This document shows, in pieces, positions 2,231 through 21,276 of a stretch of DNA of 64,000 nucleotides. Source of the DNA: Pseudoalteromonas nigrifaciens (GTDB lineage: Bacteria; Pseudomonadota; Gammaproteobacteria; Enterobacterales; Alteromonadaceae); the NCBI RefSeq assembly GCF_002221505.1, contig NZ_CP011036.1, positions 2,542,001-2,606,000 of the forward strand. Direction: 5' to 3'. Made by a program: the position numbers and the translations under genes. The notes below the pieces were generated by a model. That model did no database searches, was not told the DNA's origin, and saw only the letters and a program-made list of their open reading frames with translations. Position 1 is the stretch's first letter, and the number at the start of each line of letters is the position of its first letter.

Positions 2231-2246
2231 CGTCCAAAAGGACGAT
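2231..2246. promoter_or_regulatory. Candidate island operator, site A
   Basis: CGTCC-AAAA-GGACGAT, an inverted repeat centred between the divergent MBL/ligase operon (start 2153) and the MFS/Rieske operon (start 2307). It lies about 61 nt before the MFS start. It matches four other sites in the island (7314, 8997, 9184, 21261). The protein that binds it is unknown. Confidence 0.55.
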
Positions 2247-2306
2247 GCTGAAATTATTAGCAAAGTTAAGGTAGCTTAAAACAATATCAAAAAGAGAGAG
2301 CCATAA

Positions 2307-3707
2307 ATGCAAGTAGGTCAAAGTTCATTAAGCGCAGGTCGGACTCGTCTGACGCTATTATTGCTTTCTATTATTTACGTTTTTTCGTATATCGATCGCA
2401 ACTTAATTGCGATTGTTCTTGAGCCAATTAAATTAGAGTTTGGCGTATCAGATACTATTATGGGCGCGGTGAGCGGCCTTGCATTTGCCGTTTTATACTC
2501 TGCGGTTAGCTTTCCGTTAAGCCGTATGGCCGATAGAGGCACCGACCGTAAAAATATTATTGCGGTATGTTGTGGGCTCTGGAGCCTTGCCACTATGGCC
2601 AGTGGTGTTGTTACCCAATTTTGGCAATTTGTGGTTGCCCGTATGACGGTTGCCATTGGTGAAGCAGGCGGTACATCACCTTCTATTTCTATGGTTTCTG
2701 ATTTATACCCTCCACATCGTCGCTCATTTGCGATTAGTTTATATATGTTAGGCCCGCATATTGGCTTATTAGCCGCCATGGCATTAGGTGGTTGGATAGC
2801 CCAAGAACACGGCTGGCGCGCAGTATTCATCTTTTTTGGTATTCCAGGGCTATTACTAGCACTGCTACTTTATGTTTTTGCAAAAGACCCTGGCTTAGGT
2901 GTTTATGACACTGATGCAGAGCGTAATATTCGTGCCCAACCGCAAGAAAACTTTTTTCATGCTGTTGCCGGTATTATGAAACTAAGAGGGTTTTTCTTAA
3001 TTTGTATGGGCACTGCCATTGCTGGCATGGTCGGCTATGGTTACGCCATTTGGGCCCCCACTTTTATGGTACGCAATTATGATATGACACTTTCACACGC
3101 TGGCCTTACCTTTGGTATAGCCAGTGGTGTTTTTGCTGCTGCTGGGTCAATGTTCAGCGGTTATTACTGCGACAAATTAAGCCAAAAAGACTGTCGCTGG
3201 CAATTACGTATGCCTGCAATTGGCGTATTAATTAGTATGCCTTTTGGCTTGGCTTTTTTACTTTGGCCTGCCGACGCCTTTTGGCAATTAGGAAGCCTTA
3301 AAATACCGCACGCAATTATATTTGCTGCTGGCTTTAGCTTTTTTAATAGCTGGTGGCCAACACTTGCATTCGCTGCAGTAAGCCATTTAGTTAACAGCTT
3401 TCAAAGAGCTACCAGCATTGCAATACTAAGTTTATTTTTAACCTTTTTTGGTGCCGGTATTGGCCCACTACTAACCGGCACACTCAGTGACTTATTTTCT
3501 GCTGGTGATGCGGGTGAAGGCCTTAAATACGCCATTGCAGTGATGATTGCTTTATCGTTGTTTTCGGTTTGGTTTTACTACAAAGCCATTGGCCCTTATC
3601 AACAACGAATAGCAAGTAAAGTAAGTGATAACGATAAAACAGCGCAATCTTATAATAATAAAGCAGATTGCACCTCAGACAATAATTCAAGTACATCTAC
3701 TACCTAA
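2307..3707 (+). CDS. Spinster-type MFS transporter
   Basis: A 466-residue major facilitator with about 12 hydrophobic helices. The first helix 'YVFSYIDRNLIAIVLEPIK' and the loop 'SRMADRGTDRKNI' are typical of the Spinster-like branch that often sits in aromatic and steroid catabolic clusters of proteobacteria. ATG at 2307 follows a purine-rich AAAGAGAGAG site. The last 30 residues form a polar Ser/Asp/Asn-rich tail beyond the final helix. Rieske oxygenase follows after 18 bases, so the two form an operon. Likely role is uptake of the island's substrate, or export of an intermediate, across the inner membrane. A second carrier of the same branch lies at 12994. Confidence 0.85.
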   Translation: MQVGQSSLSAGRTRLTLLLLSIIYVFSYIDRNLIAIVLEPIKLEFGVSDTIMGAVSGLAFAVLYSAVSFPLSRMADRGTDRKNIIAVCCGLWSLATMASGVVTQFWQFVVARMTVAIGEAGGTSPSISMVSDLYPPHRRSFAISLYMLGPHIGLLAAMALGGWIAQEHGWRAVFIFFGIPGLLLALLLYVFAKDPGLGVYDTDAERNIRAQPQENFFHAVAGIMKLRGFFLICMGTAIAGMVGYGYAIWAPTFMVRNYDMTLSHAGLTFGIASGVFAAAGSMFSGYYCDKLSQKDCRWQLRMPAIGVLISMPFGLAFLLWPADAFWQLGSLKIPHAIIFAAGFSFFNSWWPTLAFAAVSHLVNSFQRATSIAILSLFLTFFGAGIGPLLTGTLSDLFSAGDAGEGLKYAIAVMIALSLFSVWFYYKAIGPYQQRIASKVSDNDKTAQSYNNKADCTSDNNSSTSTT

Positions 3708-3725
3708 ATATAAAAAGGAATACTT

Positions 3726-4820
3726 ATGGCCACTACACAAGATTATCGCCTCGGCGATTATACATTCCCAAGAGGTTGGTTCATGATAGCTACGGCTGAA
3801 GAGATCAACACGCATAAGCCCCTAGCCGTACGGTTTTTTGGTCGCGATTTCGCACTATATCGCGGTAGAGCAACAGGTCGAGTGGTACTACTCGACGCAT
3901 ATTGCCCGCATATGAAAACGCATTTAGCCGCCGAAAATGATACCTCTTACGTTATTATTGATGGCGGTGGTACCAATATCGAAGGCGATAGCATTCGTTG
4001 TCCTTATCATGCATGGCGTTTTGGCCCTGATGGCCAATGTGACGACATTCCTTACCACGACGGACCAATCCCAAAAACAGCCTGTATTAAAGCGTGGCCT
4101 GTGGCCGAGAGCATGGGTGCAATTTGGATATGGCACGATCCTGAAAATGGCGATCCTGAGTGGGATCACCCAAGTTTGCCACAATGGGACGATAAAGCTT
4201 GGGTACATTGGCGCTTTGACGACTTGGGAATACTTGAGCAGCATCCGCAAGAAGTTATTGATAACATTTGTGATTATAGCCATTTAGCACCAATTCACGG
4301 CTCTACCGTACAGCGCTACGAAAATGAATTTGATGGCCACGAAGCAATTCAACGTCAATGTGGTCCGCACCGTACTTTAGTAGGCGAAGATGGCGCAAGC
4401 CCAGTGCTGCATACAATAACTAAATACCATGGTCCGGGCGTATTAATTTCACATTTGACTGGCTATTACGAGTCTTACTTAATGATAACGCATACCCCTG
4501 TAGAGGATGGTTCAATTAGAGTTTGGCACGCATTATTAGTTAAATCACCGGGTGGCAATGAAGTAGCCACAGTAGAGGATGAAGTAGCAGCACGCCAGTT
4601 CCAAGACGCAAGTAAGTTTGCATTTATGCAAGACTTCCAAGTGTGGACAAATAAAGCACCTTGTTTTAATGGGTTGTTTTTACCAAGCGATGGCCCGTTT
4701 ATGAAAGCGCGTATTTGGTATAAGCAGTTCTTTAATCCAAGAGCGCGTAAAGAAGAGTTCCAAAGTAAAGTAAATGGCGTATATGTGCCTAAAGGCACTG
4801 TAGCTTATACCCAAGAATAA
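3726..4820 (+). CDS. Rieske non-heme iron oxygenase, KshA-like
   Basis: A 364-residue oxygenase component of a Rieske ring-hydroxylating enzyme. The 2Fe-2S ligands are C60-x-H62 and C92-x2-H95 ('CPH' and 'CPYHAWRFG'); 29 residues separate the two halves, about a dozen more than usual, forming a Gly-rich insertion. The mononuclear iron motif D-x3-D-x2-H-x4-H is complete (D179, D183, H186, H191). Size and layout fit the monomeric KshA/oxygenase-only type, which needs a separate flavin-ferredoxin reductase; no such reductase is in the window. RBS AAAAAGGAA precedes ATG. In the context of a Delta4-dehydrogenase-like and a 3-alpha-hydroxysteroid dehydrogenase-like gene, a steroid hydroxylation is plausible. 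Position and substrate are inference. Confidence 0.87.
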   Translation: MATTQDYRLGDYTFPRGWFMIATAEEINTHKPLAVRFFGRDFALYRGRATGRVVLLDAYCPHMKTHLAAENDTSYVIIDGGGTNIEGDSIRCPYHAWRFGPDGQCDDIPYHDGPIPKTACIKAWPVAESMGAIWIWHDPENGDPEWDHPSLPQWDDKAWVHWRFDDLGILEQHPQEVIDNICDYSHLAPIHGSTVQRYENEFDGHEAIQRQCGPHRTLVGEDGASPVLHTITKYHGPGVLISHLTGYYESYLMITHTPVEDGSIRVWHALLVKSPGGNEVATVEDEVAARQFQDASKFAFMQDFQVWTNKAPCFNGLFLPSDGPFMKARIWYKQFFNPRARKEEFQSKVNGVYVPKGTVAYTQE

Positions 4821-4900: not shown

Positions 4901-7072
4901 TTAAAATGAGTAAGTTATTTCTGCTCCATAAGTTACTGGGTCGCCATAGTAATTTAAGCCACCAATGAATACCCCTGACGAATCACCCAACGGCACACCG
5001 TTAATTCGGTACTCTTCGTCGGTCATGTTTTTACCCCAAATAGAGGCACTAAAGTCACTGCCGGCAATTCTTTTAAGTGAAACTCGGGCGTTAAGTAAGT
5101 TGTATTTTTCAATCCGAGTATATTGGGCTGAAGGTTGATTATGAAACGCAAAGTGATCGTCCACAAAGCTGTAGTCGGCGCCGGCGCTAAACTCACCAAG
5201 GGCTGTTTCACTAATGTAATTTAATCCAAGCGACCATTTATTTTTTGGACTATAGGGAAACTCGGCACTGTCGGTAACATCGTTTGCTACCCCAGTGTAC
5301 ACATCGTAAGTAATAAACTTGTCGTATTTAGGGTCTAACAAACCGTAATTAAAGTTTAGCGTTAAATCATCGGTTAATGCCGCTACTAATTCAAACTCTA
5401 ACCCCGCCACTTTTGCCGAGCCTACGTTTTGAATATCTGAGTACGCACCTAAGTATTCCGACATTTGCATATTGGTAATATCGTTATAAAACACCGCTAT
5501 ATTGGCTTGAATGCGTTGATCTAACCAGCGCGATTTAAGGCCCCATTCGTAGGCAATTACTTCCTCTGGTGCATAGGGTTTTACTGCTAATGCTTGAGTT
5601 GCTGCTTCACCGTTAAAACCACCCGCTTTCCAGCCTTGTGATACTTTTACATAGCTGTGAATATTGTCGGCTAACTCATAGTTAAGTGATGCCATAGCCG
5701 AGGTGTTATTCCAAGTATCGCCCGCTGTGGTGTATGGCAGTGGGAAAAAATAAGCAAAGCTAAAGTCATCTGGATGTTCTATATAAAATGATTTTTCTTC
5801 TGTGGTCCAACGCAGACCCCCTGCCAACATTAGCTTGTCGCTTAGTCGATATTCTACATTACCATAAGCGGCAACCGAGGTAGACTCAACACCATAATAG
5901 TTATTCACTGTGCCAAAACCCAGTACATACGGGTTGTTTACATCAGATTCTTCTTTAAAGTAAAACAAGCCTGCAACGTAGGTTAAATTATCTATATCGC
6001 CAATAATAAATTGTAGCTCTTGTGATACTTGCTCATGCTCTACATGGCGGTAGGTATGAAAGCCAAGAAAATCAGCGCCATCGTAGTCATTGCCATCATC
6101 GTAATCTATTTCACGTAGTGCCGTAATTGACTTAATAGTTAAGTTATTACTTTGCTGCCATGTAACTGTAAGTGCATGGCCCGAGCTTTTAGAGCGATCG
6201 AATATAGCGCCATCTAATGCAGCACTTTCTTGGCGATCTTTCGTATCTTCTGGCATTGCACCGGCAATATAAACTTGGCCCAACGGAGGAGTGTTTTTTT
6301 TATTACTGCTATCGTAAGTGTAGTAAAACTCTAGATTATCGCTGTGCTCATACAAGGCACCAAAACGCAGTGAGGTAGAATCAAGCTCTTTAAACTTATC
6401 AATATCAGAACTTGTCGAAAGGTTATCGTAAAAGCCGTCGCGCTGTTTTTTATTAGCGGTAAAATTAAAACTGAGTTTGTCGTTAATTTGCGCCGAGTCG
6501 GCAGTAACATAAACATCTGTCATACCGTAGTTACCTGCCCCTACGCGTACTTCGCCGGTAAACTCACCACTGGGTTTACGCGTTACAATATTAAGCGCCC
6601 CACCTATTGTATTTTTACCATAAAGCGTCCCCTGCGGCCCGCGCAGTACTTCAACGCGCTCTATAGCGGCTACATCAAATAAACCACCGACATTTTTAGA
6701 TACAAATACCCCGTCTATATACACACCAGTGGTGGGCTCCCAGGTAACCGCAGGGTTAATTGTAACCGAGCCACGAATAGCAATTGTAGCACCAGTACTG
6801 CCGCCTGGAGTTTCTGATATTTGCATGTTTGGCGTATATACACTGAGATCTTCAACATCTGTAATGCCTTTATCGGCCAATGCTTGGGCATTAAACACGG
6901 TAACTGCCGTAGGTAGCTCTTGTAAGTTTTGTACCCGCTTTTGCGCGGTTACTTGGATCACTTCCAAACCTTCTTTTTTAGTACTTTGCTCTTGAGCCGC
7001 TAGTGTCGAATTTGCCATGCTAATTAAGGCTAACGCTATCGCTGCATTTAGTGGTTTTTTATTAATATTCAC
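4901..7072 (-). CDS. TonB-dependent receptor of the catabolic island
   Basis: A 723-residue outer-membrane receptor. The N-terminus is a signal peptide ending near 'STLAAQE', followed by the TonB box-like 'LEVIQVTAQKR', the plug domain ('LPTAVTVFNAQAL', 'RVEVLRGPQGTLYGKNTIGGALNIVT') and a beta-barrel finishing with the terminal aromatic 'GAEITYSF'. The start is GTG, eight bases after AAGGA. The family resembles the receptors that import hydrophobic or aromatic compounds rather than classic siderophore receptors, but substrate cannot be read directly. Placed between the Rieske and aldehyde dehydrogenase genes, it is the likely outer-membrane entry for the island's substrate. A candidate operator lies 240 bases upstream. 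Confidence 0.9.
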   Translation of the reverse strand: MNINKKPLNAAIALALISMANSTLAAQEQSTKKEGLEVIQVTAQKRVQNLQELPTAVTVFNAQALADKGITDVEDLSVYTPNMQISETPGGSTGATIAIRGSVTINPAVTWEPTTGVYIDGVFVSKNVGGLFDVAAIERVEVLRGPQGTLYGKNTIGGALNIVTRKPSGEFTGEVRVGAGNYGMTDVYVTADSAQINDKLSFNFTANKKQRDGFYDNLSTSSDIDKFKELDSTSLRFGALYEHSDNLEFYYTYDSSNKKNTPPLGQVYIAGAMPEDTKDRQESAALDGAIFDRSKSSGHALTVTWQQSNNLTIKSITALREIDYDDGNDYDGADFLGFHTYRHVEHEQVSQELQFIIGDIDNLTYVAGLFYFKEESDVNNPYVLGFGTVNNYYGVESTSVAAYGNVEYRLSDKLMLAGGLRWTTEEKSFYIEHPDDFSFAYFFPLPYTTAGDTWNNTSAMASLNYELADNIHSYVKVSQGWKAGGFNGEAATQALAVKPYAPEEVIAYEWGLKSRWLDQRIQANIAVFYNDITNMQMSEYLGAYSDIQNVGSAKVAGLEFELVAALTDDLTLNFNYGLLDPKYDKFITYDVYTGVANDVTDSAEFPYSPKNKWSLGLNYISETALGEFSAGADYSFVDDHFAFHNQPSAQYTRIEKYNLLNARVSLKRIAGSDFSASIWGKNMTDEEYRINGVPLGDSSGVFIGGLNYYGDPVTYGAEITYSF

Positions 7073-7313: not shown

Positions 7314-7329
7314 AGTCCGCATGAACGAT
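7314..7329. promoter_or_regulatory. Candidate island operator, site D
   Basis: AGTCC-GCAT-GAACGAT. It matches site B in the left half and the final ACGAT, and continues with a similar A-rich flank. It lies in the upstream region of the TonB receptor gene, farther from its start (about 240 nt) than the other sites are from theirs. Confidence 0.45.
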
Positions 7330-7424: not shown

Positions 7425-8864
7425 TCAGTCGGCCGTTACTTGCGCGACCATCATGGCTTTAAATTGCTCATGATGCGGCGGTAATAAGCCCCACTCACCA
7501 CGAGGGTCGTGTTTTGGGGCAACAAATACAGTACGCTGATGGCTAAAGGCTAAAAAGCCTTCACGACCATGATAATGCCCCATACCCGATGCACCTACGC
7601 CACCAAATGGCGCATCGTGCATTGCCGCATGCATTAAGCAATCATTTACCGCTACTCCACCCGATGAAGTGTTTGCTAAAAGCTTACTCAGCTCTGCGTC
7701 ATTTTCGCCAAAATAATACAGCGCTAGTGGTTTAGCACGGCTGTTAATATCGTTAATAACGCCATCTATATCATCATAAGGAAGTAGCACTAATGCAGCG
7801 CCAAATATTTCTTGCTGCATAATATCCAGTTCTTTATCTGGGGATATAACTAATTGCAGTGGTAAACGTTTATCGCTTGTGACCAACTCTGCTAAATTAG
7901 CAACCTCATGACTACTAAGAACTTGGCATCCAGCATCGCGAGCTTGCTCAACTAAATCGACAACTCGCTGGCAATGTTGGCGGTTAACGCTAGGTACAAA
8001 ATCTGGATTATGAGTGATTTCTGGATAAAAGTGACGAAAATTTTCGAGTAATAATGCAGCCACTTGATCAAGCTTATTACGCGGTACATAAACAATGTCA
8101 GGGCTAACACACACTTGGCCGCCATTATTACTTTTTGCTAAGGCTAAGCGTTTGCAACTTTCGCTTAAATCGCAATCTTGGCTAAGCACTGCCGGCGATT
8201 TACCGCCAAGCTCTAAGGTAACTGGCACTAAATTTTTAGCCGCTGCCGCCATAATTTTTTTACCTACTTGGGTACTACCAGTAAATACTAAATGATCGAA
8301 CGGCAGTTCGCTAAATTTAGCACCAGTGTCGGCGCCACCTGTAACTACACTCACTAGTAATGGGTCTATGTGTTTGGCAAATAATTGCGCTACTAAGGCC
8401 GCTGTTTTAGGCGTGACCTCAGATGGTTTAAGTATGGCGCGGTTACCCGCCCCTAATACACACGCCAACGGGGCAAATAAGGTATAAAGTGGCGCATTCC
8501 AAGTACCTATAATACCCACACTGCCTTTGGGTTGGTATTCAACCCGTGCGGTACTACCGAGTTGATCATAAGGGGCAAACACTTCGCGGCTTTCACTTTT
8601 AAGCCATGGCTCTAAGTTGTCGCGGGTATATTTAAGGCTGGCTAGCGAGCCGAGCACATCATTCATAATAGAAAAGCCTTGGCTGCGACCATTAAAGTCA
8701 GCTTCTATTGCCTCGGCAAATGCTTGGTGATGCTCTACAAGTAAATTTATAACTTGTTGAATACGCTCTCGCCTTTGCGCTACAGTTACCAACATTTGCA
8801 ATTTATGCGCTTGTTGCTGATGCTGCAGCAAAGCTGCCATTGAACCTGAATCTTTGCTGTTCAT
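7425..8864 (-). CDS. Aldehyde dehydrogenase, coniferyl-aldehyde dehydrogenase-like
   Basis: A 479-residue NAD(P)-dependent aldehyde dehydrogenase. The catalytic set is visible: N123 in 'GTWNAPLY', the nucleotide-binding 'FTGSTQVGKK' near 194-203, E218 in 'LELGGKSP' and the nucleophile C252 in 'NNGGQVCVSPD'. The C-terminal 'PFGGVGASGMGHYHG' is typical of the class 3/coniferyl aldehyde dehydrogenase branch. RBS AAGGATA precedes ATG. It is a single-gene unit, divergent from the flavin reductase operon, with candidate operators in the shared upstream region. It probably oxidises an aldehyde released in the pathway to an acid, possibly the one activated by the acyl-CoA ligase at 1-1053. The substrate is not known. 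Confidence 0.88.
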   Translation of the reverse strand: MNSKDSGSMAALLQHQQQAHKLQMLVTVAQRRERIQQVINLLVEHHQAFAEAIEADFNGRSQGFSIMNDVLGSLASLKYTRDNLEPWLKSESREVFAPYDQLGSTARVEYQPKGSVGIIGTWNAPLYTLFAPLACVLGAGNRAILKPSEVTPKTAALVAQLFAKHIDPLLVSVVTGGADTGAKFSELPFDHLVFTGSTQVGKKIMAAAAKNLVPVTLELGGKSPAVLSQDCDLSESCKRLALAKSNNGGQVCVSPDIVYVPRNKLDQVAALLLENFRHFYPEITHNPDFVPSVNRQHCQRVVDLVEQARDAGCQVLSSHEVANLAELVTSDKRLPLQLVISPDKELDIMQQEIFGAALVLLPYDDIDGVINDINSRAKPLALYYFGENDAELSKLLANTSSGGVAVNDCLMHAAMHDAPFGGVGASGMGHYHGREGFLAFSHQRTVFVAPKHDPRGEWGLLPPHHEQFKAMMVAQVTAD

Positions 8865-8996
8865 GCACTATATCCTTACTAGGTTTTACACTTGCCTGGC
8901 GAACAATATTTGCTTACACACCATATTGCAGCTTTTGCATTGCAAGTAAACTAATTGAGCTGTGCTTCCTTTCTAGCTGTTTTTACTCAAATAAAC

Positions 8997-9014
8997 CTCG
9001 TCCACTTGGACGAG
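8997..9014. promoter_or_regulatory. Candidate island operator, site C
   Basis: CTCGTCC-ACTT-GGACGAG, a perfect 7-bp inverted repeat with a 4-base spacer, the most symmetric of five related sites. It lies 133 nt before the aldehyde dehydrogenase start. Confidence 0.6.
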
Positions 9015-9183: not shown

Positions 9184-9199
9184 AGTCCATTAAGACGAT
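9184..9199. promoter_or_regulatory. Candidate island operator, site B
   Basis: AGTCC-ATTA-AGACGAT followed by GATGAAA. It aligns closely with site A, including the flank, and lies 60 nt before the flavin reductase start, the same spacing as site A to the MFS gene and site E to the SDR gene. Confidence 0.55.
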
Positions 9200-9258
9200 G
9201 ATGAAAAATAGCCAGATCATGATACTGAAGTTATATAACAGTAATAAGGCGAGTTAAC

Positions 9259-11024: not shown

Positions 11025-11048
11025 CAGTTAACCCACGAGGGAAGTAAC

Positions 11049-11951: not shown

Positions 11952-11962
11952 GGAGTAATATC

Positions 11963-12997
11963 ATGGATTTAAAAGGTAAAAAAGTTACCCTGCACGATAT
12001 GTCATTACGTGATGGTATGCATGCTAAGCAACATCAAATTAGCTTAGATGAAATGGTGTCTATTGCCACTGGCTTAGATCAGGCGGGCATTCCTTTAATT
12101 GAGGTTACCCATGGCGACGGTTTAGGCGGCTCTTCACTTAATTATGGTTTTCCTGCTCATACCGATGAAGAATACCTAAGTGCTGTAGTGCCAAAAATGA
12201 CCCAAGCTAAAGTCTCAGCGTTATTAATTCCGGGCATAGGAACGGTTGATCACTTAAAAATGGCTTATGATCATGGCGTAAGTACAATTCGAGTGGCTAC
12301 TCACTGTACTGAAGCTGACGTTTCAGAGCAGCATATTAGCGCAGCGCGTAAAATGGGTTTAGATACCGTTGGCTTTTTAATGATGGCACATATGATCAGC
12401 CCAGAGGAGCTACTTGCACAGGCTAAACTAATGGAGTCTTACGGTGCTAACTGTATTTACTGTACGGATTCTGCTGGTTACATGTTGCCCGACGACGTAA
12501 GTACCCGTATTGCGTTACTGCGCAGCGAACTTAACAGCGAGACCGAAATTGGCTTTCATGGTCATCATAATTTAGGCATGAGTATTCCAAATTCGCTGGC
12601 GGCAATCGAAATGGGCGCTAACCGCATCGATGGTTCGGTGGCCGGTTTAGGTGCCGGTGCAGGTAATACGCCGTTGGAAGTATTTACCGCGGTACTTGAT
12701 CGTATGGCAGTTAATCACGGTATTGATTTATACAAAATTATGGATGTTGCTGAAGACTTAGTCATGCCAATGATGGATCAACCTATTCGTATTGACCGAA
12801 ACTCATTAACTTTGGGTTATGCAGGTGTTTATTCGTCATTTTTATTATTTGCAGAACGCGCCGAGAAAAAATACGGTGTACCTGCACGTGATATTTTACT
12901 TGAACTCGGGCGCTTAAAAACCGTAGGCGGACAAGAAGATATGATAGACGACACCGCAATGACTATGGCTAAGGCCTTAAAGGCGGCGAAAGCTTGA
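11963..12997 (+). CDS. 4-hydroxy-2-oxovalerate/oxohexanoate aldolase, HsaF/TesG/MhpE family
   Basis: A 344-residue DRE-TIM metallolyase of normal length. The N-terminal '[13 protein letters not shown]' carries the catalytic Arg-Asp pair, and '[11 protein letters not shown]' carries the metal-binding His pair. It splits a 4-hydroxy-2-oxoacid into pyruvate and an aldehyde, which is passed to the partner dehydrogenase encoded just upstream. The end overlaps the next gene's TTG start by 4 bases. Confidence 0.94.
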
Positions 12998-14307
12998 ACA
13001 TAAAAAAATCTAATTGGCGCCAACATGCTTTATTGTTGGTGCTTACTTTATTTTATATAGAAAGTTTTGTTGGGCGACAAATTATGGCGGTGATGATTGA
13101 ACCCATCAAAGCTGAATTTGGCGCCTCAGATGCGCAAATGGGCTTATTAACCGGCCTAGGTTTTGCCATTGTATTTACTTTAACCGGTTTATCGGCCGGC
13201 AGACTTGCTGACAAAGTGAGCCGCACACGTTTGTTAGCCGCCAGCGCATTAGTGTGGGGCATTATTACAGCACTTAGCGGCATAACTGCAGGCTTTATTA
13301 GTTTACTAATAATGCGTATGTTGGTGGCAGTAGCTGAAGCACCGGTTACTTCGGCCTCTTTATCGTTACTTTCGGACAGTTACCCGGTTGAGCGACGCTC
13401 ATTTGCGATTAGCTGTTTTACCTCTGGCGCTACCTTTGCCGCCATTATTGCGCTTACCTTAGGTGCATATTGGGTAGAGCTGTATGGATGGCGAGAAACC
13501 TTTTTTATTATCTCTACTCCCGCTTTGTTTATTTCTTTTTTGCTATTTTTTGTGATGCCCGAACCTAAACGCGGTCAATACGATGATGCCATTAGCTCTC
13601 CAACTTCACCGCTGCAGCCTGCACTAACCACAGGTTTTAGAGCATCAACAAAAGCATTGTTAAAGCGCAAAGATTATCGACTATTAGTTTGCTCAAGCGC
13701 CATTGCAACGTTAGGCGCAAATGCGTTTGGCATGTGGAATGCCACTTTTTTAGTACGCAGCCACGACTTAACACTGAGCCAAGCCGGCATGATGGCAGGC
13801 TTTTTTGGCGGCGGTGCGGCAGCGATTGGAATTCTTTCTAGTGGCTATTTGGCTGATAGAATCGCCAGACGAAAAGGTGTTTTATGGCTACCTATACTAG
13901 GCCATATACTGGGGTGGGTATTTATTGTTATATATTTTTTATGGCCTAAAGGCTTAGGCGATGACCTATTTTTTGCCGGTATTCCATTTGCTATGCTGTT
14001 TTGCACCTTAGCGAGTTTCTTTTCTGTATGGTGGGTTAGCCCTTGTCTCACATTACTCACTTCAATTGTACCGGGCACTCAGCGGGCATTGGCTATTTCA
14101 ATGCAAACCGTGCTGATTACTTTTTTAGGCATAGGTGTTGGGCCTATGTTGGTGGGCGTGCTTAGTGAAGTATTTAGCGAGGTGGCCGGTGTTGAATCCT
14201 TACGTTATGCTTTACTTATTAGTACGAGTACAACATTAATATCGGTATTTTTACTGTTTAAATTAAAATCTTATCAAGCAAAACAACTCATAAAACCCAT
14301 TCAGTAA
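12994..14307 (+). CDS. Spinster-type MFS transporter (second copy)
   Basis: A 437-residue, about 12-helix MFS carrier related to the one at 2307 ('[52 protein letters not shown]'). The start is TTG, overlapping the aldolase stop (TTGA); the next in-frame ATG would remove most of the first helix, so TTG with translational coupling is preferred. It lies inside the long catabolic operon and may carry a different compound, or the opposite direction, from the first carrier. Substrate is not known. Confidence 0.83.
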
Positions 14308-14356
14308 ATTAAACTTTGTTTTAATTACTATTAACCAATAATGCTAGGAGTTTATT

Positions 14357-15124
14357 ATGTCAGTTACCGCAGTTACAGGTTCAGCATCAGGGATTGGCGC
14401 CGCCGTTTGTGAAAAACTACGCGCAGCAGGTCATACTGTGATCGGCATAGACCGCCATCAAGCCGAGGTTAATGCCGATTTATCATCCCCCGAAGGTCGC
14501 GCTAATGCCGCAGAGCAAGTTATCAAATTAGCCAATGGTAAACTAGATGGCCTAGTTTGTTGTGCGGGCCTTGGCGTTACCGCACCAAGTAGCAGTTTAG
14601 TGGTTTCGGTTAATTATTTTGGCTCAACCGAGTTAATTGAATTACTTCAACCTGCACTCGCTAAAGGTGAGCAGCCAGCTATTACCGTTATTGGCTCAGT
14701 GGCCGCCAGTCAACAAGTGGCAGATCCACATCCTATTATTGAGTTAATGCTCAACAATGATGAGCCAGCCGCTCGCGCACTGGCAGATGAACTTGGCCAA
14801 CCACAAATAGCCTATTCGGCATCTAAATACGCACTCACTGTACATTGTCGTCGTTTAGCCGTTAAAACGGGGAGTACCGGCGTACGTATTAACTTAGTTG
14901 CGCCTGGTGCAATTGAAACTCCACTGCACGAAGCCTCTAAGCAAGATCCGCGTTTTGGCGAAGCCGTACGTAACTTTGTTGCACCTATTGGTCGCAATGG
15001 TCAGCCAAGTGAAATTGCCGATGCGGTCAGTTTTTTACAATCAGCCCAAGCCTCTTTTGTGCATGGCAGCATTATTTATGTAGATGGTGGTATGGACGCC
15101 ATGATGCGCAGTGGCAAGTTTTAA
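14357..15124 (+). CDS. SDR oxidoreductase, 3-alpha-hydroxysteroid dehydrogenase/carbonyl reductase-like
   Basis: A 255-residue short-chain dehydrogenase. The cofactor motif is TGSASGIG (7-14) and the active site YSASK lies near 154-158. Beyond the general family, it closely follows my memory of Comamonas testosteroni 3-alpha-HSD/carbonyl reductase (HsdA): the 'GIDRHQAEVNADLS' region, 'CCAGLG', 'VVSVNYFGSTELI', 'APGAIETPL', and the ending 'DGGMDAMMRSGKF'. It would oxidise a 3-alpha-hydroxyl to a 3-ketone. The next gene encodes a Delta4-ketosteroid dehydrogenase-like enzyme, which would use that product. RBS TAGGAG precedes ATG. HsdA-like SDRs also act on other cyclic alcohols, so the substrate is not proven. 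Confidence 0.82.
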   Translation: MSVTAVTGSASGIGAAVCEKLRAAGHTVIGIDRHQAEVNADLSSPEGRANAAEQVIKLANGKLDGLVCCAGLGVTAPSSSLVVSVNYFGSTELIELLQPALAKGEQPAITVIGSVAASQQVADPHPIIELMLNNDEPAARALADELGQPQIAYSASKYALTVHCRRLAVKTGSTGVRINLVAPGAIETPLHEASKQDPRFGEAVRNFVAPIGRNGQPSEIADAVSFLQSAQASFVHGSIIYVDGGMDAMMRSGKF

Positions 15125-15157
15125 ACACTAAATATTAAATACTTATAAGGATATAAC

Positions 15158-16663
15158 TTGAACCCAATACTAAGCACACACAAAGTTCGCGCTTTTGAAT
15201 CGATTAGTCACTTTGATATTAGCACCGACGTACTCGTGTGCGGTTATGGCGGCGCAGGAGCCGCCGCCGCACTAGAAGCTGTAACCTTAGGTGCTAAGGT
15301 TACTATTTTAGAACGTGCCAGTGCTGGGGGTGGCTCGACTGCATTATCAAGCTGTGAAATGTATTTAGGCGGCAGTGGCGGCACTGCATTACAAAAAGAG
15401 TTAGGTTTAGAAGATAGCACCGAAAACATGCTGGCTTATTTACGCGAAGCACTTGGCCCGTATGGCGATGAAGATAAGATGCGTTGTTATGCACAAGGCG
15501 CTGCAGGACATTTTGATTGGGTTGAATCCCTTGGTGTACCTTATAAACGCGCAGCCTTTTTAGAGCGTACAGTAGTGCCACTCAGTGATGAGTCGTTATT
15601 ATTTACCGGTAATGAAAAAGCTCACCCTTTTAATACCATTGCTAAGCCCGTTCCACGCGGTCACGTGCCCTCTAAAGTGGGCGACGAAGGCGGTAAAATA
15701 TTTATGGATGCCATAATGCAGCGCATCGCAGGCGCGGGCGCTGAGGTAATTAATGATTGTCGCGCTATTGCTTTATTAGTAGATAAAAACAATCGTGTTT
15801 GCGGCGTAATTGCTAAGCGCGACAACCGAGAAATTGCGATTCGTGCAACTCGTGGTGTGGTATTAGCCACCGGTGGCTTTGTAATGAACGACACCATGAC
15901 ACGTCAATACATGCCTGATCTACTTGAGTATTGCATACCTTATGGCAACACCTTCGATATGGGGGATGGTATTCAATTAGGCCAAGCAGTCGGCGGGCAA
16001 ACAATTAATATGGAACAGGCTTTTATGTCGTTTCCGCTCTATCCACCAGCAAAGCTAACCTACGGTATTTTACTAAATAAACACGGTCAGCGTTATATAA
16101 ATGAAGATGCGTATTTAGCCAGATTGGCACATTATTCTTGCCAACAAGCTGAGCAAAAGTTTTATTTGTTAGTACAAGAAGAGGATTTTGAGGCGTCGCA
16201 TTATTTACAACGTGCAGCCATTGTTGCCACTGGCGATAGCATAGCAGAAGTTGCCAGTGAAGCGCCCTTCCCGGCCGGTACACTTGAGCAAACTGTTAGC
16301 TACTTTAATCAGCACGCCAGTAATAAACAAGACCCACTATTTCATAAAACCGCCGAGTGGCTAAAACCGTTAAACAAGCCCCCTTTTGCCTTATTAGAAT
16401 ACTCTGCAAGTGAAATGACTGCTGTAATTATGCCCGGCACCAAAGGCCCGCTCATATTTACGCTTGGTGGGCTAAAAACACTCACTACGGGTGAAGTGGT
16501 TAATTTAGACAATGAAATAATAAGTGGGCTTTATGCTGCTGGTCGAGCCACCGCGGGATTACCACGTACAGCCAAGGGATATGCCAGTGGTATGTCGGTT
16601 GGAGATGCCACTTTTTTTGGCAGACTCGCTGGGCGCAGCGCCGCTAAACACCTGGCAATTTAA
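15158..16663 (+). CDS. FAD-dependent 3-ketosteroid Delta4-(5alpha)-dehydrogenase-like oxidoreductase
   Basis: A 501-residue flavoprotein of the KstD/fumarate reductase family. The FAD-binding dinucleotide motif is 'VLVCGYGGAGAAAALEA' near 25-41, and a second FAD segment is 'RGVVLATGGF'. Tyrosine 319 in 'NEDAYLARL' and the Tyr-x-Ser pair 475/477 in 'AKGYASGMSVGDATFFGR' correspond to the catalytic residues I recall for Rhodococcus Delta4-(5alpha)-KSTD (Y319, Y466, S468). That enzyme introduces a double bond at C4-C5 of saturated 3-ketosteroids. The start is TTG with AAGG seven bases upstream. It is the last gene of the operon from 9259. A related urocanate or fumarate reductase-type role is less likely. 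Confidence 0.8.
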   Translation: MNPILSTHKVRAFESISHFDISTDVLVCGYGGAGAAAALEAVTLGAKVTILERASAGGGSTALSSCEMYLGGSGGTALQKELGLEDSTENMLAYLREALGPYGDEDKMRCYAQGAAGHFDWVESLGVPYKRAAFLERTVVPLSDESLLFTGNEKAHPFNTIAKPVPRGHVPSKVGDEGGKIFMDAIMQRIAGAGAEVINDCRAIALLVDKNNRVCGVIAKRDNREIAIRATRGVVLATGGFVMNDTMTRQYMPDLLEYCIPYGNTFDMGDGIQLGQAVGGQTINMEQAFMSFPLYPPAKLTYGILLNKHGQRYINEDAYLARLAHYSCQQAEQKFYLLVQEEDFEASHYLQRAAIVATGDSIAEVASEAPFPAGTLEQTVSYFNQHASNKQDPLFHKTAEWLKPLNKPPFALLEYSASEMTAVIMPGTKGPLIFTLGGLKTLTTGEVVNLDNEIISGLYAAGRATAGLPRTAKGYASGMSVGDATFFGRLAGRSAAKHLAI

Positions 16664-16903: not shown

Positions 16904-17830
16904 TTATTCTGTTTTTAACACACGGCCAAGCGTTATATCGCCCTCAATGGTGGTGCGGTTAATAACGCGATTGATCCCAGGCTTAGTGCCGGTAGTGCAG
17001 TGCATTGCACGCCAGTTATCCCACAGTACCATGTCGCCTTCGCGCCATTTATGAAAGTAAGTAAATTCCGGCTTTTGTACATGCGCAACAAGTCGCTCAA
17101 GTAGCTCTATAGATTCATCATTCGATAAACCAAATTGCTGTGGAGTAACAACTCTATCTAAAAACTGCTCTACCACCTCAAGTACTTTACGGCCACTGAT
17201 CGGGTGCGTAACTACCATAGGGTAAGCAGCGTCTGAAAAGTCAGGAAAGCCAATATCGGTTGGTTTTGTTGGGCTGTTAGGGCCAGGCTCATAACCGTCT
17301 AAGTTAACGTAACGCATATGACGGCGCTGCATACTAAAGCTGTAAACCACTTCTAGCTGTTCAATTAAAGCTTTAGTGTCGTCGTCGAGTGCATCGTACG
17401 CTTTTGCTAAATCGCCAAAACCGGTCATGCCATCTTCTGCTGCCACCACCACAGCGCGCAACAGTGCACCATGATTTGGACGCGCTGTATAATGCAAATC
17501 CATGTGCCAATCTAACCGACCCACAATTTCTTCGCCTTTATAAAAAGCAGTTTGAAACTTATCCATAGGGCCACCATTTTGTAGCACAAATAACTCTGGA
17601 TATTTATCACTGGTGGTAACTTTTAACGGATGTAATTCTAACGGGCCAAAAATGCGACTAAACTCAATTTGCTTTTCAGGGCTAATATCCTGATCACGAA
17701 ACACTAAAATAGCGTGTTCGTACCATAGTGCTTTTAGTTCAGCTTTTATTTCATCGGTAAGTGGCTCGTTAATATCGAAACCCGACACTTCTACGCCAAC
17801 ATTATCAAGCGGAGTTACTGTAAGCTTCAT
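16904..17830 (-). CDS. TauD/TfdA-type Fe(II)/2-oxoglutarate dioxygenase
   Basis: A 308-residue alpha-ketoglutarate-dependent dioxygenase. Iron ligands are H109-x-D111 ('DWHMDLHY') and H277 ('NWRAMHCTTG'), with R292 fifteen residues later as the 2-oxoglutarate anchor, the same spacing as in TauD. The N-terminus 'LTVTPLDNVGVEVSGFDINEPL' is typical of the family. It follows the class II aldolase gene by 39 bases and ends at a strong terminator, so the two form an operon. TauD/TfdA enzymes hydroxylate or cleave many substrates, including sulfonates and phenoxyacetates; here a pathway-specific hydroxylation is likely but the substrate is unknown. Confidence 0.88.
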   Translation of the reverse strand: MKLTVTPLDNVGVEVSGFDINEPLTDEIKAELKALWYEHAILVFRDQDISPEKQIEFSRIFGPLELHPLKVTTSDKYPELFVLQNGGPMDKFQTAFYKGEEIVGRLDWHMDLHYTARPNHGALLRAVVVAAEDGMTGFGDLAKAYDALDDDTKALIEQLEVVYSFSMQRRHMRYVNLDGYEPGPNSPTKPTDIGFPDFSDAAYPMVVTHPISGRKVLEVVEQFLDRVVTPQQFGLSNDESIELLERLVAHVQKPEFTYFHKWREGDMVLWDNWRAMHCTTGTKPGINRVINRTTIEGDITLGRVLKTE

Positions 17831-17869
17831 TTTTTATTCCTTCTACTTAGCTAAGTGAATCCGACAAAT

Positions 17870-18640
17870 TTAGTCGACTAAACCTGGATCTAGGCGTAAT
17901 TCTTTACGCGCCATTGCTTCCCAAACAAAAGGGAAACCGTTGTCGTCAGCAATAGACACTTTTTTAACTTCTTCATCACTTAATGGTCGCCCGCCACCTG
18001 CTAATTCCACTTCATACGCGCGTTTACTGCGCCACTCTAAAGTAATTGCTCTTAGGTGTGCTTGGCGCAGATTTTTACCCACCACTAACGAGCCGTGGTT
18101 TGCCAGTAATGCCCACTTAGCATCACCGAGCGCTTCAACTGCTGATAAGCTAGTTGCTTCGTTTTCAAAGGTGCCTTCATATTCATCATAAAGTGGTAAT
18201 TCAACACCACAATAAGCACTTGCTTGGTCATATACTGGCGGCACTTTTTGCATACAAGCCCAAATACCACTCCAATGCGGGTGATTGTGAATAACAACAT
18301 GTACATCAGGTCGCATTGCGTGCAACTGTAAGTGCAAACCTATCGCTGGGGTCACATTCCAATCACTATCAAGCACATTCCCCTTTGGGTCTAGCGTAAC
18401 GATATCGCTGGCGGTTAACTCCCCCCAAGCGAGCTCCCATGGATTAGTTAAAATATTACCGTTTTCTAATCGGTAAGTAATATGCCCTGCAATATGCTCA
18501 TCCCATCCTTCACGAATAAGCATGCGACACATAAGCGCAACTTGCGCTTTTTCGCTTAACTCTGGTAATAATTCTTTGCGACCCGGACGAGTTGCAAAGC
18601 GCTCTAGCATTGATTGATTAAGGCCATCATATTTTTTCAT
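17870..18640 (-). CDS. Class II aldolase/adducin-family protein
   Basis: A 256-residue class II aldolase domain protein. The zinc-binding His cluster is 'VVIHNHPHWSG', with a third His in 'LLANHGSLVVG', and the oxyanion segment 'HIAGHITYRLENGNILTNP' is present. Length fits the adducin-head type found in catabolic clusters, where some members are aldolases or decarboxylases and some lack a known reaction. It is the first gene of a two-gene operon with the TauD-type dioxygenase. The dioxygenase may create the beta-hydroxy-carbonyl that this enzyme cleaves, which is speculative. No candidate operator of the island type was found in front of it. Confidence 0.85.
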   Translation of the reverse strand: MKKYDGLNQSMLERFATRPGRKELLPELSEKAQVALMCRMLIREGWDEHIAGHITYRLENGNILTNPWELAWGELTASDIVTLDPKGNVLDSDWNVTPAIGLHLQLHAMRPDVHVVIHNHPHWSGIWACMQKVPPVYDQASAYCGVELPLYDEYEGTFENEATSLSAVEALGDAKWALLANHGSLVVGKNLRQAHLRAITLEWRSKRAYEVELAGGGRPLSDEEVKKVSIADDNGFPFVWEAMARKELRLDPGLVD

Positions 18641-18767
18641 TATTATTATACCTTCCTGTTGCTGTGCAAAATAAACATGTTAAATCATGGTTAAAATAAT
18701 AGGTCTGAGTGGTTAATAAAGCTTGTCTCATTGCGCCAAGTTGTTATCCGATCTAGCCATTAACTAG

Positions 18768-19787
18768 CTAATAGCGCACCGCAAATAACGCATGGCGAAA
18801 AGCACTTGGCGACAACCCAGTCCATTTTTTAAAAGCGCGATGAAACCCTGAACTATCGGCATACCCAAGTTGCTGACCAATGCGGGTGATTGATAACGTA
18901 GGATCGCTCAAATGTCGCCGCGCATGTATCTCTCGTACTTGATCGATTAATTGTTGATAGCGCCAACCTTGCGCCAATAACTTACGGCTCAAGGTACGGC
19001 AACTACAATGCAGCTTTAGTGCTGCATCGTGCAGCGATGGAGGACTGGCAGGATCTTCAACAATAATTTGCGACAAACGCCATGCTATGTCGCCATGATT
19101 TCGAGTAATGCTTTTTTCTTCGCACAGTTTTTTATAAAAGTTGACACTCTCAGGGCTCGACTGCGGGAGTGGTTGATCCAAAATCGCAGCATCAAAAAAT
19201 AGCTGGGTTACTGGGGCATCAAATTCGACGGGGCAATTAAAAATGGCTTGGTAACGCTCAGCATGTACTGGCGCCGGATAATTACAACGTAGTTTAGTAA
19301 TAGGCAATGCTTGACCAAGCACCCAACGACAAGTCGTGACTATATTGGCAAGTAAATCTTCTATTGCTAATACACGCAATTCACCCAGCTCAGTTTTAGC
19401 GTCAATTTGATAACAGCCTTCGGCTTGAATTTCACTAAAGGAGGTCACTACTAAATTACCAGAAAAGCGGCCTGAGTAATTTTGATATTTAAGCCCAATA
19501 TGGCTGGCATCGCGCAGCGTCGCGCTGCTCATCATTAAATATGCAAGTTGGTCGTGGGTAGCAATAGAGCGTTTTAAACCTAATATGAGTCCAAGATCGC
19601 TGCCCTCATAACACTGCTGTGCATCAGTTAGTAAACCTCGATGCTGTTTAGCATTAATGAGTACATTAGGTTTGTGGAGCTCACTGCGACTGATACCATT
19701 GTTGGCAGCAATGGTGTTGGTATCCATTCCCAAGCTAGATAAAAAATCCAGCAACCAAATAATATAACGCGTATCAGTATTGACCAT
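18768..19787 (-). CDS. AraC-family transcriptional regulator
   Basis: A 339-residue regulator with an N-terminal 'arabinose-binding-like' ligand domain (about 10-190; 'GLILGLKRSIATHDQLAYLMMSSATLRDA') and a C-terminal double helix-turn-helix ('LHDAALKLHCSCRTLSRKLLAQGWRYQQLID' and 'SITRIGQQLGYADSSGFHRAFKKWTGLSPSAFR'). This is the OruR/ArgR-like branch common in catabolic loci. I chose ATG 19787, which has GAGGGG six bases upstream, over an in-frame TTG ten codons earlier. It lies inside the island, between the aldolase operon and the MaoC-SDR operon, and is the only local transcription factor, hence the first candidate to control it. AraC proteins usually bind direct repeats, so the palindromic sites may belong to another protein. 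Confidence 0.87.
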   Translation of the reverse strand: MVNTDTRYIIWLLDFLSSLGMDTNTIAANNGISRSELHKPNVLINAKQHRGLLTDAQQCYEGSDLGLILGLKRSIATHDQLAYLMMSSATLRDASHIGLKYQNYSGRFSGNLVVTSFSEIQAEGCYQIDAKTELGELRVLAIEDLLANIVTTCRWVLGQALPITKLRCNYPAPVHAERYQAIFNCPVEFDAPVTQLFFDAAILDQPLPQSSPESVNFYKKLCEEKSITRNHGDIAWRLSQIIVEDPASPPSLHDAALKLHCSCRTLSRKLLAQGWRYQQLIDQVREIHARRHLSDPTLSITRIGQQLGYADSSGFHRAFKKWTGLSPSAFRHALFAVRY

Positions 19788-19939
19788 GTTACCCCTCGTT
19801 TGTGTAATTAAATCCAACCTTTTATCAATAACCGTTATTCTTAAATTGCACTCTTATATTAAGCAATTTAATACTATTATTTGTAACATAACCGCTAGCT
19901 GTTTAAGTGTTATGCTTTAGTCGTGCTTAACCAAAACAT

Positions 19940-20401
19940 TTAGACAAACGAGTAACGGCTAATGGTATCTACCACGCAGGCTGGCCTTTGTTGCTCTGCC
20001 ACTTCAATGGTTACTCGTGTGATCACTTGCACACTGCCTTTAACTTCTTCCACACTAATTATTTGCCCTGTGCCGCGTACTTTACTGCCCGCTGTAACCA
20101 CATTAGGAAAACGTACTTTATCGCAGCCGTAATTAACTCCCATGGTTATATTTTGCACATCTACCAACTGTGGTAAAAAATAATTAACCAAAGATAAGGT
20201 TAAATAACCATGCGCAATACATGCACCAAATGGGCCTTCTGCAGCTTTAATGGGATCGACATGGATCCATTGATGATCTCCCGTTGCCTCGGCAAACATA
20301 TCAATACGGCTTTGCTCGACTGCAATCCAGTCGCTTACGCCTAAATCAAGTCCGGTTGAAGCGAGTAATTGCGCTTTGCTAGTAATTATTTGATTTGCCA
20401 T
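19940..20401 (-). CDS. MaoC-family (R)-enoyl-CoA hydratase
   Basis: A 153-residue single hot-dog MaoC-like dehydratase. The catalytic hydratase-2 motif is 'FAEATGDHQWIHVDPIKAAEGPFGACIAHGYLTLSL' (Asp and His in the 'GDHQWIHVD' segment). It closely resembles mycobacterial Rv0130/HtdZ-type proteins as I remember them. It would hydrate a 2-enoyl-CoA to the 3R-hydroxyacyl-CoA. The RBS is AGGGGG, and the start lies 8 bases after the SDR stop, so the two genes are one operon and may act in the same beta-oxidation-like sequence. Confidence 0.88.
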   Translation of the reverse strand: MANQIITSKAQLLASTGLDLGVSDWIAVEQSRIDMFAEATGDHQWIHVDPIKAAEGPFGACIAHGYLTLSLVNYFLPQLVDVQNITMGVNYGCDKVRFPNVVTAGSKVRGTGQIISVEEVKGSVQVITRVTIEVAEQQRPACVVDTISRYSFV

Positions 20402-20409
20402 TTTGCCCC

Positions 20410-21195
20410 CTAAGCGCGCTGCGAACTAACAGACACAACTTCGCCTGTCATGTAAGACGAGTAATCGCTGGCTAAAAACATCATCACGTTGGCAATTTCC
20501 CATACTTCGGCAGCACGACCAAAAGCTTCTTTTGAGGCTAATTGCTCAAGTACATCGGCACTTGAGGCTTTTTTAAGAAATTCATGTAAAGCGATTGAAG
20601 GCGATACCGCGTTAATGCGCACTCCATGCTCAGCAGCTTCTAATGCCGAGCAGCGAGTAAATGCCATAACACCGGCTTTAGCAGCGGCGTAATGTGCTTG
20701 CTCTTTTTGTGCTCGCCAACCCAATACTGAGGCATTATTAATGATTACACCTGCCTTGCGTTGTTGCATAAATGGCAGCATTGCACGGGTCATACGAAAT
20801 GTACCGGTAAGAGTAATGTCCATCACCTTACTCCACTGCTCGTCGCTCATATCTACCACTGCGGTTTGACCACCTAGGCCAGCATTATTAATAAGCACAT
20901 CAACACCGGCGAGTTTATCCTCTGCTGCATTGATCAATACCTGAACCTGTTCTTCTTGGCTTACGTCGCACAATTGGCCAAACACCTGTTGCAAACCTGT
21001 TTGCGCTTTTATATTAGCTACAGCTTCATCTAAACGACGTGGATGAATGTCAGATATCATTAATGCCCGGCACCCTTCTTCGGCTGCACGTAATGCGGCT
21101 GAAAAGCCAATGCCCGCGCCTGCGGCGGCCGTTACTAAAACCGATTTCCCGCGTAACAGGTTATGCCCTTCTACGTACTTAGGTGCTGTCGTCAT
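20410..21195 (-). CDS. SDR oxidoreductase, IpdF-like
   Basis: A 261-residue short-chain dehydrogenase. I place the start at ATG 21195, which has GGAG ten bases upstream; a 20-codon longer frame has no such site. The cofactor region is the unusual 'VTAAAGAGIG', with 'NNAGLGGQTAVVDM', the active site 'YAAAK' preceded by 'NNASVLGWRAQ', and 'NAVSPSIALHEFLKKAS'. These are almost word for word what I recall for mycobacterial IpdF (Rv3559c), which oxidises 5-hydroxy-HIP-CoA during steroid C/D ring degradation. If right, this is one of the most pathway-specific markers in the island. It is cotranscribed with the MaoC hydratase, and a candidate operator lies 66 bases upstream. Confidence 0.83.
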   Translation of the reverse strand: MTTAPKYVEGHNLLRGKSVLVTAAAGAGIGFSAALRAAEEGCRALMISDIHPRRLDEAVANIKAQTGLQQVFGQLCDVSQEEQVQVLINAAEDKLAGVDVLINNAGLGGQTAVVDMSDEQWSKVMDITLTGTFRMTRAMLPFMQQRKAGVIINNASVLGWRAQKEQAHYAAAKAGVMAFTRCSALEAAEHGVRINAVSPSIALHEFLKKASSADVLEQLASKEAFGRAAEVWEIANVMMFLASDYSSYMTGEVVSVSSQRA

Positions 21196-21260
21196 TCTTA
21201 TCTCCGATGTCGTGCTTATTAATTTAGCACCCAGCATAAGGCTGACGCTGAGCAACTATC

Positions 21261-21276
21261 ATCGTCAATCTGGACT
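21261..21276. promoter_or_regulatory. Candidate island operator, site E
   Basis: On the minus strand AGTCC-AGAT-TGACGAT followed by GATAG, with TT before AGTCC as in site B. It lies 66 nt before the IpdF-like SDR start, similar to the 60-61 nt spacing at sites A and B. Confidence 0.55.

What the first reader, a model, noticed from the sequence alone, without database searches (positions are those of the whole stretch)
2231..21276. A recurring dyad before five transcription units of the island
Sites at 2231, 7314, 8997, 9184 and 21261 share (A/C)GTCC-N4-(G/A/T)(G/A)ACGA(T/G). Three of them lie 60-66 nt from a start codon, and similarity extends into the flank (GATG and A-rich). Site C is a perfect 7-bp inverted repeat. 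The sites cover the MBL/ligase, MFS/Rieske, TonB, ALDH, flavin reductase and SDR/MaoC units. This looks like an operator for a dimeric repressor or activator not yet identified; no TetR or similar gene is in the window.
Basis: seen in the sequence. Interest (0 to 1): 0.75.

Follow-up and report, generated by a model that had tools for sequence, protein, structure and literature searches.

The report
Shared switch for bacterial steroid-eating genes
Short mirror-symmetric DNA sites in front of steroid-degradation genes recur, typically at the same distance from a predicted promoter element, in many bacteria that carry one particular regulator gene, so they are very probably the docking sites through which that regulator switches on steroid breakdown.

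Summary
The dyad is real and the island is an aerobic steroid-degradation cluster. Cluster 2 has four further promoter dyads and encodes a LuxR-type (GerE-HTH) regulator, P0001. In 80 loci encoding P0001 relatives, GTCY-N4-RGAC has 76 distinct non-coding contexts, against 3-14 at every other spacer from 0 to 20; 61 of 80 loci have one. Of 369 gammaproteobacterial genomes, the two with the regulator have 5 and 8 exact motif hits, the other 367 have 0-2; three KshA-positive genomes without the regulator have none. In 51 aligned promoters a -10-like hexamer is enriched 31-32 nt after the dyad centre, placing the dyad near -42.5: LuxR-type class II activator geometry.

Best explanation: an activator operator (TMGTCY-N4-RGACGATG) bound by the P0001 family, not a TetR/GntR/IclR repressor site. 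Site B is doubtful, and the window does hold a regulator gene (AraC). Binding and expression are not shown. No operator motif for this family appeared in the open-access papers searched. Whether P0001 is the orthologue of Comamonas TeiR/TesR was not tested.

The parts
2231..2246 (+). Site A, perfect dyad CGTCC-AAAA-GGACG followed by ATG; between the divergent MBL/CoA-ligase and MFS/KshA units
   Evidence: 28.9 bits; centre 69.5 nt from MFS start and 84.5 nt from MBL start
2267..2272 (+). Possible -10 (TAAGGT) for MFS/KshA at +30 from the centre of A; weak, and TAGCTT at +35 scores higher
   Evidence: rank 2 of 54 offsets
7314..7327 (+). Site B, weakest dyad (AGTCC-GCAT-GAACG), doubtful member
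   Evidence: (17.7 bits)
8997..9014 (-). Site C, perfect 7-bp inverted repeat CTCGTCC-N4-GGACGAG; GGACGAGG half faces the ALDH gene
   Evidence: 22.9 bits; centre 141.5 nt from ALDH start
8970..8975 (-). Possible -10 (TAGAAA) for ALDH at +31 from the centre of C
   Evidence: 0.4 bits, rank 6 of 54
9184..9197 (+). Site D, AGTCC-ATTA-AGACG then ATGATG; before the flavin-reductase operon
   Evidence: 23.9 bits; centre 68.5 nt from start
9221..9226 (+). Possible -10 (GATACT) at +31 from the centre of D
   Evidence: 3.6 bits, rank 2 of 54
21263..21276 (-). Site E, AGTCC-AGAT-TGACG then ATGAT on the minus strand; before SDR/MaoC/AraC/aldolase/TauD
   Evidence: 25.8 bits; centre 73.5 nt from ATG at 21196
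21233..21238 (-). Possible -10 (TATGCT) at +32 from the centre of E
   Evidence: 5.0 bits, rank 2 of 54
1..2153 (-). Acyl-CoA ligase (cut by the window; best NCBIfam match steroid-24-oyl-CoA synthetase, below its cut-off) and MBL-fold hydrolase
2307..4820 (+). MFS transporter and Rieske oxygenase with KshA_C domain
4901..7072 (-). TonB-dependent receptor
7425..8864 (-). Aldehyde dehydrogenase
9259..16663 (+). Flavin reductase, hydratase, acetaldehyde dehydrogenase, aldolase, MFS, SDR and FAD-binding dehydrogenase genes, one orientation
16904..21196 (-). SDR, MaoC, AraC-family regulator (18768-19817), class II aldolase and TauD genes, one orientation

Best explanation
The sites are operators of a steroid-catabolism regulon, consensus T(A/C)GTC(C/T)-N4-(G/A)GACGATG: two hexameric half-sites with a fixed 4-nt spacer. 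A dimer of the LuxR-type (GerE-HTH) regulator encoded in the second steroid cluster of the same genome (P0001, C1:974081-975241) binds them. The dyad centre sits near -42.5 of the transcription start, the GATG half lies next to RNA polymerase, and no conserved -35 is seen. The protein therefore most likely works as a class II activator that recruits polymerase when its N-terminal region (predicted GAF/PAS-like, weak model) perceives a steroid or a breakdown product. Shown by computation: the sites, their conservation, spacing, orientation, co-occurrence with the regulator and the register of a -10-like hexamer. Inferred: physical binding, activation, transcription start and ligand.
For: Second steroid cluster with the same dyads before its genes. 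Genus: of 108 genomes only G000 and G101 have full-length P0001 and they have 8 and 9 motif hits (up to 1 mismatch) against 0-6 in the other 106. 80 regulator loci: N4 spacer 76 distinct non-coding contexts, others 3-14; 61 of 80 loci have one. Unbiased dyad search lists the same register in each of five clades. Class: regulator in 2 of 369, exact motif 5 and 8 hits there, 0-2 in the other 367; KshA_C in 5 of 369, the 3 without regulator have 0 motif hits. GATG half faces the gene in 26 of 29 scored cases. -10-like hexamer at 31-32 nt in 51 promoters and best-scoring there in 5 of 8 G331 sites. HTH block nearly invariant over 92 relatives. N4-spaced hexamer inverted repeats are the canonical sites of ComA, a LuxR-type HTH (passages of PMC4797271).
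Against: No binding or expression data. 19 of 80 loci have no non-coding N4 dyad of this form. Coding-labelled DNA also has an excess at N4 (64 against 10-48), unexplained. By noncoding/coding ratio the motif ranked only 38th and 21st of 640 in betaproteobacteria and Pseudomonas. In the home genome alone only 3 of 10 promoters have their best -10 at 30-32, A toward MBL and H2 rank 8 of 54, and two of four wrong-direction controls (ranks 5 and 7) fall in the same range. The regulator-versus-pathway separation rests on three genomes. The 80 loci were chosen for having the regulator, so they cannot by themselves separate it from another factor of the same clusters. 24 of 30 ORFs of cluster 2 were scanned for domains.
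Confidence: 0.82

Rival explanations
1. The same dyad is an operator of a different, unidentified dimeric factor (for example TetR type) that co-occurs with the P0001 regulator and represses the steroid genes.
For: Palindromes before promoters are typical of such repressors (recalled; also said of TetR in a PMC12882949 passage); the regulator gene and other cluster genes travel together.
Against: The only regulator domains among 24 of 30 cluster-2 ORFs scanned are those of P0001; motif abundance follows P0001 across the class sample; the -42.5 position upstream of the -10, without a -35, fits an activator.
Confidence: 0.1
2. The operator is bound by the AraC-family protein encoded in the island (18768-19817).
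For: Its gene lies in the island, in the unit downstream of site E.
Against: AraC relatives at E 1e-10 are found in 9 of 83 loci examined, at 31-35% identity over about 180 residues, all in Pseudomonas, while dyads are found in 61 of 80; AraC proteins bind direct repeats (passage of PMC12882949), and this site is an inverted repeat.
Confidence: 0.04
3. Chance: the five sites are a coincidence picked from a large window, or in part other elements (C as a terminator hairpin).
For: C scores as a terminator-like hairpin on the minus strand. B is weak.
Against: Spacer scan, genus and class co-occurrence, G331 sites and -10 register exclude chance for the set; a minus-strand terminator at C would lie upstream of the ALDH gene.
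Confidence: 0.02

Closest known systems
TeiR/TesR of Comamonas testosteroni and the TeiR-like proteins of Pseudomonas stutzeri Chol1
   Same: LuxR-type positive regulators of steroid degradation encoded in steroid gene clusters (passages of PMC8399759, PMC6678751, PMC8700777). A Stutzerimonas stutzeri K1 locus is among the P0001 relatives, with a dyad (L161).
   Different: Sequence orthology with TeiR was not tested. TeiR is reported as a polar membrane protein with kinase activity (passage); here the anatomy suggests a DNA-binding class II activator. No operator for TeiR appeared in the passages seen.
LuxR quorum-sensing activators and the lux box
   Same: GerE-type HTH; imperfect dyad 42.5 nt upstream of the transcription start (passage of PMC7585371).
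   Different: Different half-site sequence; the N-terminal part of P0001 has no Pfam match, so no acyl-homoserine-lactone domain was recognised.
ComA of Bacillus subtilis
   Same: LuxR-type HTH dimer on hexameric inverted repeats with an optimal 4-nt spacer (passages of PMC4797271).
   Different: Half-site TTGCGG rather than T(A/C)GTCY; different signal input (quorum response).
KstR/KstR2 (actinobacterial cholesterol repressors)
   Same: Control steroid catabolic regulons.
   Different: TetR-type repressors; [quoted passage not shown]
EdcR operator of Caenibius tardaugens
   Same: Palindrome in promoters of a steroid (estrogen) degradation cluster.
   Different: Consensus TnnCnnTACnAnTnGTAnnGnnA overlapping the -10 and bound by a repressor (PMC8700777 passages).

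Membership tests
LuxR-type (GerE-HTH) class II activator operator | Dyad of two half-sites with a fixed spacer | tested here: met
   N4 76 distinct non-coding contexts against 3-14 for spacers 0-3 and 5-20
LuxR-type (GerE-HTH) class II activator operator | Centre near -42.5 from the transcription start | tested here: inconclusive
   -10-like hexamer at +31/32 in 51 promoters, far above shuffles, but starts were not mapped and home sites alone are weaker
LuxR-type (GerE-HTH) class II activator operator | A GerE-HTH protein accompanies the sites | tested here: met
LuxR-type (GerE-HTH) class II activator operator | Physical binding and activation | not testable with these tools
   needs gel shift and reporter assays
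TeiR/TesR regulators | Sequence orthology with Comamonas TeiR/TesR | not tested
   No Comamonas sequence reached: paper not held, none in the plasmid collection, none named in the 120 rows listed of each protein search
TeiR/TesR regulators | Gene inside a steroid degradation cluster | tested here: met
TetR-type (KstR-like) operator | A TetR gene in the clusters | tested here: not met
   None among 18 ORFs scanned in window 1-21255 or 24 of 30 ORFs of cluster 2; 6 ORFs and the rest of the genome not scanned
AraC-type site | Direct-repeat half-sites | tested here: not met
   Sites are inverted repeats
EdcR operator | TnnCnnTACnAnTnGTAnnGnnA overlapping the -10 | tested here: not met
   Different consensus and position by comparison passages

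The most novel reading that the evidence does not exclude
One LuxR-type one-component steroid sensor and one operator, T(A/C)GTCY-N4-RGACGATG at -42.5, control aerobic steroid catabolism across Alpha-, Beta- and Gammaproteobacteria. That would make the TeiR class direct ligand-responsive class II activators rather than membrane kinases, and would let the regulon, including steroid genes not yet recognised, be read off any genome.
Probability: 0.55. Interest if true: 0.75.

Novelty: new member of a known kind. Interest (0 to 1): 0.66.

Why it matters
Regulatory mechanisms of bile-acid and steroid degradation in Proteobacteria are called largely unknown in a 2021 review (passage of PMC8399759). 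A conserved operator, a candidate cognate regulator and a predicted transcription-start register turn this into simple experiments (gel shift, reporter, 5'-end mapping, deletion). They also give a genome-reading rule for finding unassigned steroid genes and a possible basis for steroid biosensors.

Tried and rejected
Rejected: a TetR/GntR/IclR repressor, the island's AraC as the binder, and chance (see rival explanations). Site B as a TonB operator was left as doubtful; the terminator reading of C was judged unlikely. The noncoding/coding ratio ranking of 640 dyads was a poor statistic: target 4th overall, 1st in the marine set, 3rd Marinobacterium/Halomonas, 2nd Vibrio/Endozoicomonas, 38th betaproteobacteria, 21st Pseudomonas; top ranks were mostly AT-rich or few-copy dyads. 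The spacer scan replaced it. Conservation in G101 says little because flanks are 95-99% identical too; D carries one change there. Attempts to reach Comamonas TeiR failed. Structure models (pLDDT 70 and 73, pTM 0.45 and 0.47) and Foldseek (top 50 rows mainly GAF/PAS sensor proteins, TM 0.17-0.36) give only a weak hint at a GAF/PAS sensor; the profile search of solved structures gave 0 hits.

Limits: the place lists were cut, so for G101 only motif counts (6+3) were seen there. Counts take a palindrome twice where both strands match. The 51 promoters are the home sites plus those with a home-homologous gene start 55-125 nt downstream, after a redundancy filter; the rest of the sites were not used. 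The orientation count leaves out 14 divergent sites, 41 without a qualifying gene and those with tied flanks. Non-coding DNA was defined by my own ORF masking, with the first 60 nt of ORFs left unmasked. Papers: PMC8399759, PMC6678751, PMC8700777, PMC12882949, PMC13101464, PMC4810484, PMC7585371 and PMC4797271 were seen as find passages; other papers as search listings with the start of the abstract; none was read whole.
Full report
What is there. The five sites exist at the stated places. The window is 2542001-2606000 of contig C1 of a 4.27 Mb genome. The genes around the sites belong to aerobic steroid degradation: a Rieske oxygenase with the KshA C-terminal domain, a flavin reductase, hydratase/acetaldehyde dehydrogenase/aldolase genes (TesEFG-like by recalled pathway order), an FAD-binding dehydrogenase, SDR and MaoC genes, a TonB receptor and MFS transporters. 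An AraC-family gene lies in the unit below site E.

Second cluster. One new place, 969441, led to a second steroid cluster 1.57 Mb away, which begins just after secG and a tRNA-Leu gene. It encodes an HsaA-type oxygenase (best NCBIfam match, below its cut-off), a reductase, ChsH2-domain proteins, acyl-CoA dehydrogenases, a BphC-type dioxygenase, a hydrolase, a CoA transferase and others. A matrix built from nine sites, five in the window and four in cluster 2, gives strong intergenic dyads in cluster 2 at 969441, 976230/976236, 988528, 988569 and 994236. Only 988528 (21.4 bits) was not a training site; the other four were first found with patterns built on the window's sites. In the 11 other stretches scanned nothing exceeded 15.1 bits. 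With up to two mismatches to MGTCCANNNKGACGATGMTG, 7 of 9 genome rows (6 dyads) lie in the two clusters; the others are 1127666 and window 30948. A/B-ring and C/D-ring genes in separate clusters were reported for Pseudoalteromonas haloplanktis (passage of PMC4810484).

Regulator. Cluster 2 encodes P0001, 386 aa, whose Pfam matches are both C-terminal HTH models. In the genus 2 of 108 genomes have it at full length (G000, G101); the strongest match elsewhere is E 1e-6 and covers the HTH end. Those two have 8 and 9 motif hits with up to one mismatch; the other 106 have 0-6. KshA_C was found in 4 of 108: these two strongly, G018 and G038 more weakly.

Conservation. Twenty-three aligned relatives were used to fetch the best 80 of 424 loci from genomes of Thalassotalea, Glaciecola, Shewanella, Marinobacterium, Halomonas, Vibrio, Endozoicomonas, Thauera, Aromatoleum, Azoarcus, Zoogloea, Pseudomonas and others. 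There GTCY-N4-RGAC has 76 distinct non-coding contexts; each spacer from 0 to 3 and 5 to 20 gives 3-14 (mean 6.85). 61 of 80 loci have at least one. Coding-labelled DNA also shows an excess at N4 (64 against 10-48), which may partly reflect miscalled starts; I did not resolve it. A dyad search with no prior motif lists the same register among the printed top rows of each of five clades (TCGTC-N6-GACGA or GTCCG-N2-CGGAC). Several downstream genes are orthologues of home steroid genes: the ECH/SDR divergent pair, HsaA-like and SDR genes, TonB receptors. Among 29 scored one-sided cases the GATG half faces the gene in 26.

Class test. Of 369 gammaproteobacterial genomes, 2 have the regulator at E <= 1e-40: G000 and G331, the latter with two copies. 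Exact TAGTCYNNNNNGACGATG counts are 5 and 8; the other 367 have 0-2, and 59 of 369 have any. G000 helped to define the pattern, so G331 is the independent case. KshA_C is in 5 of 369; the three without the regulator (G124, G268, G351; G351 is 84% complete) have no motif hit. Of 18 background hits for which loci were given, 16 are in coding DNA and none has a home steroid homologue in its 3 kb. In G331, 4 of 8 sites precede orthologues of home cluster-2 proteins; the other four showed no such hit in the 3 kb fetched.

Mechanism. In 51 promoters aligned on the dyad centre a -10-like hexamer is enriched at 31-32 nt: mean best score at offsets 30-32 is 2.91 bits against a maximum of -0.42 in 2000 shuffles; it is the best hexamer in 26 of 51, shuffle mean 2.8, maximum 9. 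Columns 11-29 are almost unconserved and A is commonest at +43 (30 of 51). If +43 is the start, the centre is at -42.5, the lux-box position (passage of PMC7585371). In G331, 5 of 8 sites have their best hexamer at 31/32. Home-only support is thinner: the best hexamer is at 30-32 in 3 of 10; right-direction ranks run from 1 to 8 of 54, and two of four wrong-direction controls rank 5 and 7 (the others 22 and 27). Half-site length and spacer match ComA, a LuxR-type HTH whose inverted repeat is optimal at N4 (passages of PMC4797271).

Further afield. Plasmid-borne relatives (20 records) were sampled in Cupriavidus, Caballeronia and Sphingobium. N4 dyads number 4, 6 and 2; other spacers 0-12 give at most 2 in the first two, but 6 at N0 and 3 at N2 and N12 in Sphingobium. 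Several have a -10 at 30-32. The Sphingobium regulator is 31.6% identical to P0001 and lies beside KshA and an extradiol dioxygenase. This is suggestive only for Alphaproteobacteria.

Literature. Review passages say that TeiR/TesR of Comamonas is a positive LuxR-type regulator, that TeiR-like genes occur in P. stutzeri Chol1 and that mechanisms in Proteobacteria are largely unknown. Searches of the open-access library listed no paper that announces an operator motif for this family; most listed papers were not opened, and the original TeiR paper is not held.

Verdict. An ordinary kind of element (an activator operator), but one that seems undescribed, is widely conserved and has a strong candidate for its protein.

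Noticed in passing
window 18768-19817 (minus): AraC-family regulator gene (Arabinose_bd plus HTH_18) between MaoC and class II aldolase genes, in the unit downstream of site E, so it may itself belong to the regulon.
   Followed up: partly
L027:4871-5640 (genome C1 964871-965640): The second steroid cluster begins right after secG and a tRNA-Leu (GAG) gene, which looks like an insertion beside a tRNA.
   Followed up: no
genome C1 1725631, 1736057, 2075653, 2256761, 2273252, 3421371: The identical 14-mer CGTCAATTAGGACG recurs at six places, presumably in some repeated element.
   Followed up: no
window 30948-30961: Dyad-like CGGCC-AAAG-TGACG 121 nt before an ORF, outside the steroid island; 13.8 bits, no -10 at 31-32.
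   Followed up: partly
L027:9182-9201: Degenerate dyad (10.4 bits) before the cluster-2 TonB receptor, where several relatives have a good site; the home copy may have decayed.
   Followed up: no
G331:C1 1676858 and 2840957: Two diverged copies of the regulator in one genome, each with motif hits within about 110 kb; they may serve different parts of the regulon.
   Followed up: no
window 27385-28962: BcsG-type cellulose biosynthesis gene beyond the island, beside a sigma-54 activator gene with PAS and ACT domains at 25700-27256.
   Followed up: no
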